A stretch of DNA of 35,223 nucleotides from NCBI GenBank assembly GCA_017656235.1, contig JACDOF010000020.1, positions 1 to 35,223 on the forward strand. The letters are read 5' to 3'. The notes under the pieces were generated by a model. It was not told where the DNA came from, searched no databases, and was given only the letters and a program-made list of their open reading frames with translations. Made by a program: the position numbers and the translations under genes. The DNA is from Brevibacillus sp. Its GTDB lineage: Bacteria > Bacillota > Bacilli > Brevibacillales > Brevibacillaceae. Shown here piece after piece: positions 32,482 to 35,219 of the stretch (position 1 is its first letter; the number at the start of each line of letters is the position of its first letter).

Positions 32482-32838
32482 GGGGGCGTTCTGGATTCGA
32501 CGGGAATGGTTGAGCATAAGAAGCGAGCCGGGGGGCTGCGGACCCCGTCATCAACGCGGAAAGCCATAACTGGCAACAAACAACTTTCTCTCGCTGCCTA
32601 ATTAACCAGCGAGGCTCTACCACTCCATTGCCCGCGTGGCGTGCGTAGGGCTCACTACTAGCGGGCTGCGCCGGCGGCCTCCGCCTGGGGCCAAAGGAAG
32701 AAGACCAATCAGGCTAGGGTAGCGGCTGGCGTGTCGTTCCGCAGGCCGCTAACCGAAACGCAATAGAACGACTGCGCTCGGAGATGCTTATGTGGTCGCC
32801 GTTTTCGGACGGGGGTTCGAATCCCCCCGCCTCCACCA
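32482..32838 (+). ncRNA. ssrA: Transfer-messenger RNA (tmRNA)
   Basis: A 357-nt tmRNA. The 5' GGGGGCG pairs with 3' CGCCTCC, and the tRNA-like ends include the GGATTCGACGGG segment and the T-arm GGGGGTTCGAATCCCCC. CCA is encoded. The tag reading frame starts at GGC (32572) after ATAACT and runs to TAA (32599-32601): G-N-K-Q-L-S-L-A-A, so with the charged alanine the tag is AGNKQLSLAA. The C-terminal LAA is the degradation signal for ClpXP. I find no good promoter immediately upstream, so its transcription start is unclear. Confidence 0.97.
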
Positions 32839-33045: not shown

Positions 33046-33074
33046 TTTACAAATTTTTGCCAACGTGTTAGATT
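33046..33074 (+). promoter_or_regulatory. Sigma-A-type promoter of the RT module
   Basis: TTTACA (33046-33051), a 17-bp spacer and TAGATT (33069-33074). Transcription would start near 33081, about 165 nt before the RT gene. Confidence 0.65.
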
Positions 33075-33080
33075 GAATAT

Positions 33081-33230
33081 TAAGTCATTAGGTGACGAAC
33101 GGAGGTTATATCTACCGGACGTATATCCGGGTATGGTGAGTAGCCTATTTCTCTCATGGCTATTCCAAAGAGAGAACTTACTTTTACTTATAGCTTCCGT
33201 GAAAGGTCTTGCCTTTAGGCAAGATCTTTT
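33081..33230 (+). ncRNA. Candidate structured RNA upstream of the reverse transcriptase
   Basis: A transcript from the promoter at 33046 would begin here and contain three hairpins. The first is TACCGGA with TCCGGGTA around 33113-33133. The second is TTCTCTC (33149-33155) with GAGAGAA (33170-33176), 7 bp perfect, with an alternative TAGCC/GGCTA pairing. The third is a 12-bp stem (33202-33213 with 33218-33229) with a TTTA loop that ends in T residues like a terminator, five bases before the RT ribosome binding site. No open frame here has a ribosome binding site at proper distance. It could be the RT's template or cofactor RNA, or simply a regulatory 5' leader. Confidence 0.5.
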
Positions 33231-33247
33231 GTTATAGGGGGGTTAGT

Positions 33248-34750
33248 ATGTTAAAGGAAGAGTTAACTAATCATATTAAGATGATTGCAGAAAGAAAGGC
33301 TAGCGAGTACCACTTGTATCACAATAATATTGAGCTTATTTATCAACGAAATAAAAGAAGGGTTAGGAACCCCACAAGAAAAGAAATCATTGTCCCCGAT
33401 TATTGGAAGGTAGATAAGAAACATAATCCTTTCTATGTTCTTAAACACCTTAACCAAATTAGTAACTCTATTTTTAACAAACTTGTGGATGGTACATATG
33501 AACCTTTCGAACCTCATTTGAAGTATATCCAGAAGAAAAATAGTACAAAGACTAGGCCAATTCAAATTTTTCAAATACCAGATGAGGCGGTCTCTAATTA
33601 TTTCTATAATAGGTTGCTTGGAAAAAATAAACATCGTTTTAGTTCATTTTCTTATGCCTATAGAAATGACAGGAATGTACATTATGCCATTCAAGATATC
33701 GCAATTGACATTAAAACTAGCCCTAGAATGTTTGTAGCCGAATTTGACTTTCGTGATTTTTTTGGTTCTATTCAGCATGAATATCTTTTCAAGCAGTTTG
33801 ATGAAAATGGCTTTTTAATAAGCGAATTTGAAAGAAGTATAATTAAGTCTTTCCTGAAACATTTTCCTAAAGGTATACCTCAGGGTACTTCATTATCATT
33901 ATTCTTAGCCAATATGGTATGTTGGAAATTGGATAAACAACTTGAGAAGGAAGGGTTAAGGTTTGCAAGGTATGCTGATGATACCATTATTTGGTCTGAG
34001 GAGTACTCTAAAATATGCAAAGCCTTTGAAATTATTCAAGGATTCTCCAGAGAAACCGGGGTGGAAATAAATCTACACAAATCTGACGGTATTAGCCTTT
34101 TATCAAAAGAAGGAATGCCCTCCGAGTTTAGCTCATATAAAACCTCTATAGATTTTTTAGGGTATTCACTTTCAGGTGATAATGTAAGTATAAAAAATGC
34201 ATCAGTCAACAAAATAAAAAGAGAAATCAGTTATATTTTATATCGGAATTTAATTCAACCACTTAGAGGGACAAAGTTACAATCGGTTACTATACCTAAC
34301 AATAACATGGACACAGATTTTGTTACGGCTATAATGCAAATAAGAAGATATTTATATGGAAACCTTAGCGAGCATATGCTAAAAAGCTATCTCAATGGTT
34401 CATACAAGCGTTTAAACTTTAAGGGGATAATGAGTTTTTATCCTCTAATTGATGACATTGATCAGATGAAATATTTAGATAGGTGGCTTATTTCTACCAT
34501 TCTAAATGCCCTTAAGAAAAGAAATAGGTTGCTAATTAGGCATGGTCATAACTGTTCTAATCAATTCCCGTTCAACCTAACTCATAAGGATATTCTTGAA
34601 AGATGTAAACAAATGAGAATTCATGGAAAGAAAGGGCTAATAGAGATACCTAGCTTCCTAAGGATTTTCAGAGCAATTCAAAAGCAAGTTATTATAAAAG
34701 GGATTGAGAAAACTATGCATCCAAAATCAAATGAATATGATTATGAGTAA
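33248..34750 (+). CDS. Reverse transcriptase, probable defence-associated (DRT/UG type)
   Basis: A 500-residue stand-alone reverse transcriptase. N-terminal residues 1-95 are helical and basic. The finger motif is KTRPIQIF (101-108). Motif A is EFDFRDFF (165-172), motif B GIPQGTSLSLFLAN (209-222), the catalytic YADD is at 242-245, motif D is GVEINLHKSD (271-280) and motif E is IDFLGYSL (301-308). Residues 330-500 form a mainly helical extension of unknown type, with no HNH, En or nitrilase domain and no maturase that I recognise. AGGGGGG (33236-33242) sets the ATG at 33248. The gene is AT-rich (19 G+C in 33841-33900) beside a GC-rich core, lies after ssrA and follows a structured RNA. That suggests an acquired anti-phage RT; the class is not assignable by eye. 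Confidence 0.85.
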   Translation: MLKEELTNHIKMIAERKASEYHLYHNNIELIYQRNKRRVRNPTRKEIIVPDYWKVDKKHNPFYVLKHLNQISNSIFNKLVDGTYEPFEPHLKYIQKKNSTKTRPIQIFQIPDEAVSNYFYNRLLGKNKHRFSSFSYAYRNDRNVHYAIQDIAIDIKTSPRMFVAEFDFRDFFGSIQHEYLFKQFDENGFLISEFERSIIKSFLKHFPKGIPQGTSLSLFLANMVCWKLDKQLEKEGLRFARYADDTIIWSEEYSKICKAFEIIQGFSRETGVEINLHKSDGISLLSKEGMPSEFSSYKTSIDFLGYSLSGDNVSIKNASVNKIKREISYILYRNLIQPLRGTKLQSVTIPNNNMDTDFVTAIMQIRRYLYGNLSEHMLKSYLNGSYKRLNFKGIMSFYPLIDDIDQMKYLDRWLISTILNALKKRNRLLIRHGHNCSNQFPFNLTHKDILERCKQMRIHGKKGLIEIPSFLRIFRAIQKQVIIKGIEKTMHPKSNEYDYE

Positions 34751-34947: not shown

Positions 34948-34985
34948 TGGTAATAAGCCTCTATGTACCGGACGCCTTTTCATTT
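34948..34985 (+). terminator. Intrinsic terminator downstream of the RT gene
   Basis: AAGGCGTTCTGG pairs with CCGGACGCCTT (about 11 bp, one bulge) around a 17-nt loop, followed by TTTC. It is about 200 bp after the RT stop; the 34751-34947 interval shows no gene. Confidence 0.65.
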
Positions 34986-35116
34986 CATATATCCGTCTTT
35001 TCGGGAATTTGGTACATAGAATCTGAATCGAAATCTAAAAAAGTTTTCAGAACGAGGAACTCGATCACACCGATCACGGTTGCGGAAAAGACGCATCCTA
35101 ATAAAATACCCTTCAT
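34985..35116 (-). CDS. Possible small membrane protein, 43 aa
   Basis: A 43-residue open frame on the minus strand. It starts MKGILLGCVFSATVIG, a hydrophobic segment with a lipobox-like LLGC, and has a second hydrophobic patch and an acidic tail ending PEKTDI. No ribosome binding site is visible, and the start may not be correct. It could be a small membrane protein or the end of a longer broken gene. Unrecognised. Confidence 0.3.
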   Translation of the reverse strand: MKGILLGCVFSATVIGVIEFLVLKTFLDFDSDSMYQIPEKTDI

Positions 35117-35132
35117 CAGCTTGTTTGTACAG

Positions 35133-35219
35133 TTAAGCTTCTTTCCGAACAGTCAACTTAGACTCAAATTCCAATTCTGATAGATAATTGGTAATTGTTT
35201 CGATGGGGCGTTTTCCCAT
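35133..35219 (-). CDS. Possible small protein or gene fragment, 28 aa
   Basis: A minus-strand open frame that starts at the window edge with MGKRPIETITNYLSELEFES and stops at 35133, 17 bp before the next small open frame. The composition looks like coding sequence (amphipathic helix), but the real start and upstream context lie outside the window. The two frames might be pieces of one frameshifted gene or two overlapping small genes. Unrecognised. Confidence 0.25.
   Translation of the reverse strand: MGKRPIETITNYLSELEFESKLTVRKEA

What the first reader, a model, noticed from the sequence alone, without database searches (positions are those of the whole stretch)
33046..34750. Promoter - structured RNA - stand-alone reverse transcriptase: candidate new DRT-type defence system
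Seen: a 500-residue RT with all catalytic motifs intact (EFDFRDFF, GIPQGTS, YADD), an unassigned C-terminal extension of about 170 residues, and no intron or retrotransposon partner. It sits in an AT-rich patch right after ssrA and has its own promoter and structured leader. Known: several DRT/UG systems (for example DRT2 and DRT9) consist of an RT with an upstream non-coding RNA that it copies. Inference: this is a one-gene RT plus ncRNA system; I cannot place it in a described class.
Basis: partly seen in the sequence, partly recalled or inferred. Interest (0 to 1): 0.9.

Follow-up and report, generated by a model that had tools for sequence, protein, structure and literature searches.

The report
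DRT9 anti-phage reverse transcriptase with ncRNA
A single gene and the small RNA in front of it form a DRT9 phage-defence system, a type already described, in which the enzyme is known to copy a short run of U's over and over into long poly-A DNA; this copy in a Gram-positive bacterium is ordinary, apart from a host that lacks the exonuclease which keeps the system silent in E. coli.

Summary
The 500-aa RT (33248-34750) matches the Drt9 profile over its whole length (699.8 bits; next family 104.4), has 55% identity and a predicted fold (TM 0.96) in common with solved DRT9, and groups with four Bacillaceae DRT9s (100/99). The leader is the DRT9 ncRNA: a covariance model built from 16 upstream regions, the window's among them, hits 45 of 62 distinct DRT9 loci at E<=0.01, each just ahead of the RT, and 11 of its 15 pairs show compensatory change. 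The U4 template (33182-33185), Tyr24 and the C-terminal tyrosines Y497 and Y499 are present. The mechanism (protein-primed poly-dA, abortive infection) is taken from published relatives; nothing was tested in this organism. The gene lies in AT-rich DNA directly behind ssrA; in the two other genomes held for the genus that site holds restriction-modification genes. ExoI, the silencer found in E. coli, is absent from this host and from the ten other Bacillota and Bacteroidota DRT9 hosts searched, so what silences DRT9 there is an open, testable question. New member of a known kind.

The parts
33248..34750 (+). DRT9 (UG28) reverse transcriptase, 500 aa; YADD at residues 242-245, N-terminal helix with Tyr24, C-terminal tail SNEYDYE with Tyr497 and Tyr499
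   Evidence: PADLOC Drt9 E 4.8e-211 over residues 3-497; PDB DRT9 sequence E 8.3e-179; Foldseek TM 0.96, 55% identity to 9vma; Y24 and Y497 invariant in the 29 family members aligned
33078..33201 (+). DRT9 ncRNA core
   Evidence: covariance model hit, 96.7 bits, with the window in the training set; fold z = -6.4
33084..33096 (+). 5' stem-loop of the ncRNA (33084-33088 with 33092-33096)
   Evidence: 4 of 5 pairs with changes on both sides in 16 sequences, 97.5% of cells paired
33099..33200 (+). long-range closing stem of the ncRNA (33099-33110 with 33189-33200) enclosing inner hairpins and the template loop
   Evidence: single-strand fold; two covarying helices of 5 pairs each
33182..33185 (+). 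U4 template; the stretch CUUACUUUUACUU around it is identical in the E. coli DRT9 ncRNA
   Evidence: the four T invariant in 16 of 16; U-run of at least 4 in 46 of 48 distinct model hits. In the free-RNA fold two of the four U's are paired
33201..33230 (+). 3' hairpin (SL6-like, 13 bp) just before the RT ribosome-binding site
   Evidence: fold; hairpin plus T-run at the same place in many homologues by eye; SL6 is missing from the mature SenDRT9 ncRNA
33046..33074 (+). possible sigma-70-type promoter (TTTACA, 17 nt, TAGATT)
   Evidence: 9 of 12 consensus match, 0.8 expected by chance; weak
32482..32838 (+). ssrA (tmRNA), likely insertion site of the AT-rich island
   Evidence: ARAGORN, Rfam RF00023; degenerate copy of its 3' end on contig C13

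Best explanation
It is a DRT9 anti-phage defence system. Shown here: an intact RT of the DRT9 family and, directly upstream, a conserved and covarying ncRNA with the U4 template. Inferred from published work on SenDRT9, PsaDRT9 and E. coli DRT9: the ncRNA wraps the RT, RT-ncRNA complexes assemble into hexamers, a C-terminal tyrosine (Y497 and/or Y499) primes synthesis, and the enzyme copies the U's repeatedly into kilobase-long poly-dA attached to itself. In uninfected cells a host 3'-5' exonuclease would remove the product. During infection phage factors favour its synthesis and protect it, so poly-dA builds up and the infected cell stops before phage is released (abortive infection). The gene was probably gained with an island behind ssrA.
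For: Drt9 profile 699.8 bits against 104.4 for the next family. Full-length match to the one DRT9 chain sequence in PDB 9ioa, 9iob, 9nlv, 9nlx, 9vku and 9vma, E 8.3e-179. AlphaFold model (pLDDT 89.2) on DRT9 at TM 0.96, rmsd 1.6 A; best group II-type RTs 0.52-0.58, DRT2 chain 9c0i 0.41. Tree: Bacillaceae DRT9 clade of 5 rows, 100/99. ncRNA model hits at E<=0.01 in 45 of 62 distinct DRT9 loci, 29 of the 46 not used for training, and 0 of 4 non-DRT9 sources; 92.9% of cells paired, covariation 0.589 against 0.264 in shuffles. U4 present. Priming tyrosines and Tyr24 at the places the papers show to matter. The four closest homologues lie near DarTG (two of them), a type IV-like and a type I restriction enzyme.
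Against: No expression, cDNA or phage data exist for this locus. In the Nature study 2 of 10 cloned DRT9 systems are named as defending in E. coli, so activity is not automatic. The host lacks ExoI, the silencer used in E. coli, so that step must differ. The RNA contacts that build the hexamer were not checked, and the window's ncRNA is shorter than that of E. coli (124 against 148 bases). In the free-RNA fold two of the four template U's are paired. The contig ends 473 bases after the RT, so a partner such as a SLATT protein cannot be excluded.
Confidence: 0.93

Rival explanations
1. A new DRT class that resembles DRT9 but makes a different product, for example a DRT10 (UG17)-like tandem repeat from a longer template.
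For: UG17 is among the better secondary PADLOC matches (94.5 bits); DRT10 and DRT9 ncRNAs are described as similar.
Against: 605 bits separate Drt9 from UG17. The template loop is the conserved U4, whereas the DRT10 loop is poorly conserved with an A-B-A' pattern; the tail carries tyrosines, while DRT10 uses a serine. DRT10 is described as tripartite with a SLATT protein.
Confidence: 0.02
2. Group II intron, retron or DGR reverse transcriptase, or its remnant.
For: Generic RT similarity: TIGR04416 129.8 bits; DGR and retron chains among the distant structural matches.
Against: TIGR04416 scores far below its cutoff of 300; no intron RNA at Rfam's thresholds; full-length DRT9 match.
Confidence: 0.005
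3. A true DRT9 that is silent or decaying in this host, without ExoI or a suitable trigger.
For: No ExoI domain in the genome; a repeat ends the contig close by.
Against: Intact frame with the catalytic, priming and template elements kept. RTs with open frames also occur in eleven other hosts in which no ExoI domain was found.
Confidence: 0.05

Closest known systems
SenDRT9 / E. coli DRT9 (PDB 9nlv, 9vma; PMC12483538, PMC12489045)
   Same: RT fold over its full length, 55% identity, N-terminal helix Tyr, C-terminal YDYE, upstream ncRNA with an identical template stretch CUUACUUUUACUU; the two E. coli copies found also lie behind ssrA
   Different: Bacillota host without ExoI; shorter ncRNA (124 against 148 bases for the model hit); no ORF of integrase size between ssrA and the RT, whereas E. 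coli has an integrase there
DRT9 of Bacillus sp. FJAT-29937, Domibacillus tundrae, Bacillus sp. FJAT-27245, Shouchella tritolerans (L009, L010, L026, L054)
   Same: 67-74% identical RT, same ncRNA layout, one starred clade
   Different: other defence neighbours; no tRNA or tmRNA found in the fetched stretches
DRT2 (UG2)
   Same: single RT plus upstream ncRNA
   Different: Drt2 profile only 77.8 bits; fold TM 0.41; DRT2 copies a ~120-nt template by rolling circle
DRT10 (UG17)
   Same: protein-primed repeat synthesis on a ncRNA
   Different: 94.5 bits only; serine primer, A-B-A' template, SLATT partner

Membership tests
DRT9 (UG28) | RT of the UG28/Drt9 sequence family over its full length | tested here: met
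   699.8 bits, residues 3-497; E 8.3e-179 to the solved DRT9 chain; tree
DRT9 (UG28) | DRT9 fold with N-terminal helix extension | tested here: met
   TM 0.96 to 9vma, helix 2-38; a prediction
DRT9 (UG28) | intact YADD catalytic site | tested here: met
DRT9 (UG28) | structured ncRNA directly upstream of the RT | tested here: met
DRT9 (UG28) | U-rich template in the ncRNA loop | tested here: met
   U4 at 33182-33185; invariant in 16 of 16; at least U4 in 46 of 48 distinct hits
DRT9 (UG28) | C-terminal priming tyrosines | tested here: met
   Y497, Y499 in SNEYDYE; Y497 invariant in 29 aligned of 62 loci; 4 of 62 RT tails have no Tyr in their last 14 residues (L011 and L046 are broken or leave the frame, L065 and L067 are divergent). 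Presence tested, priming not
DRT9 (UG28) | RNA kissing contacts that build the hexamer (SL5/SL5.1, SL4/SL4) | not tested
   read; the window's inner arms were not compared with them
DRT9 (UG28) | poly-dA synthesis and phage defence | not testable with these tools
   needs the bench
DRT9 (UG28) | SLATT partner (occasional, not required) | tested here: inconclusive
   no ORF over 60 aa follows the RT before the contig end; tblastn with one Thioclava SLATT matched only its own locus among 62, a weak test for so variable a family
Group II intron maturase | maturase-level score and intron RNA | tested here: not met
   129.8 bits against cutoff 300; no intron at Rfam's thresholds
DRT10 (UG17) | UG17 RT | tested here: not met
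   94.5 against 699.8 bits for Drt9

The most novel reading that the evidence does not exclude
DRT9 in Bacillota and Bacteroidota is kept silent by something other than ExoI, either another 3'-5' single-strand exonuclease or a different control of the RT-ncRNA complex. The 'silencer against trigger' switch worked out in E. coli would then be one host-specific version of a more general scheme.
Probability: 0.65. Interest if true: 0.4.

Novelty: new member of a known kind. Interest (0 to 1): 0.22.

Why it matters
It places a complete DRT9 system, ncRNA and template included, in a Gram-positive host and shows that the RNA layout and the priming tail hold across phyla. The useful question is regulatory: in E. 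coli, wild-type SenDRT9 could not be transformed into a strain without ExoI, yet in this host and 11 of the 17 other DRT9 hosts searched no ExoI domain was found. The site behind ssrA also looks like a defence hot spot in this genus.

Tried and rejected
Single-protein scans of genome contigs and viral contigs found no relatives; the alignment-based scan then gave 61 loci, of which L068 and L069 are too weak and served only as controls. tblastn against phages gave 22 records, none covering 80% of the query; among plasmids 2 of 2639 records with a match cover 80% (Hymenobacter, Thioclava). Rfam on the leader at a relaxed E-value gave three matches, all below gathering scores. A second intact ssrA in the genome was not found; only the degenerate copy on C13 appeared. 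That C13 is the far side of the same island is inference: nothing joins it to C20. An empty site could not be proved: the first clear gene on C13 (Mpo1-like) is absent in one relative and only 32% identical in the other.

Results against a uniform ncRNA: 14 of 62 distinct DRT9 loci gave no model hit at E<=1. Three belong to the close group (51 loci): L019 and L055, which show the U4 loop by eye, and L031, whose contig starts about 113 bases before the RT. The other eleven are all the divergent members (34-39% identity; L004, L056, L057, L059, L060, L061, L063-L067). Nine of those eleven were tested and score best with Drt9, 484-586 bits (L061 and L065 not sent). Three hits (L035, L036, L050) lie between E 0.01 and 1. 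L049 has U3; L035 is misaligned in the model alignment (U5 by eye).

Limits: I chose 29 of 62 loci for the tyrosine alignment and 17 of the 62 plus the own genome for the ExoI search, where the completeness of those 17 genomes is not given. The model was trained on 16 loci that it then finds again. The tree leaves out L011, L046 and L062 (broken or cut).

Papers: PMC12483538: outline, sections 3-8 and 23, part 1 of section 45, passages. PMC12489045: outline, part 1 of 3 of the results, passages. PMC8934634, PMC13275509, PMC12632851: passages only. 'Bacillota', 'Firmicutes', 'Bacillus' and 'ssrA' do not occur in the held main text of PMC12483538, nor 'Bacillota' in that of PMC12489045; supplements could not be read. 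The literature searches are only.

Full report
What is there. It follows ssrA (32482-32838) where GC drops from about 0.55 to 0.33. The window is the whole of contig C20 of a 3.6-Mb genome; it ends 473 bases after the RT, in a stretch with near copies on C6, C17 and C25. The genome is listed as same phylum as G176, whose contig is the 'Bacillota bacterium' record L011: L006 lies inside L011.

What the RT is. PADLOC's Drt9 profile covers residues 3-497 with 699.8 bits; the next family scores 104.4, UG17 94.5 and Drt2 77.8. Pfam sees only RVT_1 at 94-307, which is why the C-terminal part looked unassigned. The group II maturase model TIGR04416 scores 129.8 against a cutoff of 300. The only PDB sequence at E<=1e-50 is the DRT9 chain shared by 9ioa, 9iob, 9nlv, 9nlx, 9vku and 9vma (E 8.3e-179). 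An AlphaFold model from 28 family members (mean pLDDT 89.2) matches DRT9 complexes at TM 0.89-0.96; the next matches are group II-type RTs at 0.52-0.58, and DRT2 9c0i scores 0.41. The last seven residues were modelled with low confidence, so the place of the priming tail is not shown here.

Relatives. An alignment-based scan of one genome per species gave 61 loci, 59 of them DRT9 relatives (49 at 48-74% identity, 10 at 34-39%). With the window, a Thioclava plasmid copy and an E. coli copy (two genomes of 5426 by DNA similarity, same RT accession) that makes 62 distinct loci. A tree of 60 rows (59 of these 62, plus one outgroup) puts the window with the Bacillus, Domibacillus and Shouchella proteins at 100/99; E. 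coli and Photobacterium sanctipauli, the source species of the published PsaDRT9, lie in another part of the same 48-row group. DRT9 is rare among kin: 1 of 99 genomes at relatives' range and 2 of 398 in the phylum sample, the window's own counted in both.

The ncRNA. 33078-33238 folds far better than its shuffles (z = -6.4). In 16 aligned upstream regions the UUUU of the loop is invariant. RNAalifold, given only the alignment, finds the 5' hairpin and the long-range stem, 11 of 15 pairs with compensatory change. Against controls: 92.9% of cells paired (75.9% in shuffles), covariation 0.589 (0.264; 0 of 500 as high), and every slid version far lower. A covariance model from these 16 hits 47 of 68 sources at E<=0.01 and 50 at E<=1, one hit each, on the RT strand just ahead of the RT. 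Without two duplicates that is 45 and 48 of 62 distinct DRT9 loci; of the 46 not used for training, 29 and 32. By group it is 48 of 51 close and 0 of 11 divergent loci at E<=1. The 4 non-DRT9 sources gave none. In the 48 hits the U-run is 4 in 36, 5 in 9, 8 in 1, 3 in 1 and misaligned in 1 (duplicates removed). The window's CUUACUUUUACUU is the same in E. coli DRT9. The published template is U123-126; counted from the start of the E. coli model hit the U4 there begins at 127. In the window's own free-RNA fold two of the four U's are paired, so the open loop rests on the solved complexes, not on this fold.

Key residues. The paper names Y496 and Y498 in IMNPQSLNYDYE as likely primers, and the other names Y25 as stacking on the ncRNA. 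The window has MHPKSNEYDYE with Y497 and Y499, and Y24 at the Y25 place. Y24 and Y497 are invariant in the 29 members I aligned. Of 62 tails read, 4 have no Tyr in the last 14 residues: L011 and L046, which are broken or leave the frame, and L065 and L067, which are divergent; the tails of L036 and L064 also look out of frame.

Mechanism. By the published work: RT-ncRNA complexes assemble into hexamers, a tyrosine primes, the U's are copied over and over to poly-dA; ExoI removes it in uninfected E. coli; phage gp58 protects it and escape mutations in phage ribonucleotide reductase point to dATP supply; accumulation leads to abortive infection. The elements for synthesis that I checked are present here; the RNA contacts of the hexamer were not checked. 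The regulation cannot be quite the same: the ExoI domain PF08411 has no match in this genome, in 5 of 5 other Bacillota and 5 of 5 Bacteroidota DRT9 hosts searched, and is present in 6 of 7 proteobacterial ones (none in Ramlibacter); of 14 control genomes only E. coli has it. Other exonucleases were not searched.

Setting. In the two other genomes held for this genus the stretch behind ssrA carries other defence genes: in G002 a C5 methyltransferase with TdeIII- and EcoO109I-type endonucleases; in G001 an N6 methyltransferase and a weak HsdR-like fragment (21.3 bits, below the Pfam cutoff of 25) with a transposase, named by eye, between them. A degenerate copy of the ssrA 3' end and terminator (83% identity, E 2.4e-8) lies at the start of contig C13, as expected of the far edge of an ssrA island; that link is inference. 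DRT9 also follows ssrA in the two E. coli genomes, with an integrase between, and in a Desulfobacula MAG (L046); that is the only tmRNA among the 60 other loci scanned, many of them short. The four nearest homologues have DarTG (L009, L010), a type IV-like (L026) or a type I restriction enzyme (L054) nearby.

Verdict. It is a new member of DRT9.

Noticed in passing
L088 (G001) and L089 (G002), downstream of ssrA: In both other genomes held for the genus the site behind ssrA holds different restriction-modification genes, so it looks like a defence hot spot.
   Followed up: partly
G000 contig C13 (L074) 176-230: Degenerate copy of the ssrA 3' end plus terminator at a contig start, possible far boundary of the island.
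   Followed up: partly
L049 5811-5921 (Luteimonas sp. 8-5) and L043 369-484 (Urechidicola): DRT9 ncRNAs with a three-U and an eight-U template run: natural test cases for how many U's are needed. L049 is a Drt9 by profile (623.9 bits).
   Followed up: partly
L004, L056, L057, L059, L060, L061, L063-L067: A divergent DRT9 group (34-39% identity to the window RT; Drt9 is the best profile in the 9 of 11 tested) with no hit to the ncRNA model; some show other U-rich loops such as CUCAUUUUAU upstream.
   Followed up: partly
window 34985-35219, - strand: Two short ORFs at the contig end; the last ~100 bases have near copies on contigs C6, C17 and C25, so a repeat probably broke the assembly here.
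   Followed up: no
L006/L011 (Bacillota MAG, contig of 15010 bases): DRT9 RT with one internal stop codon, a broken copy or a sequence error; its upstream ncRNA is in the model's training set and complete.
   Followed up: no
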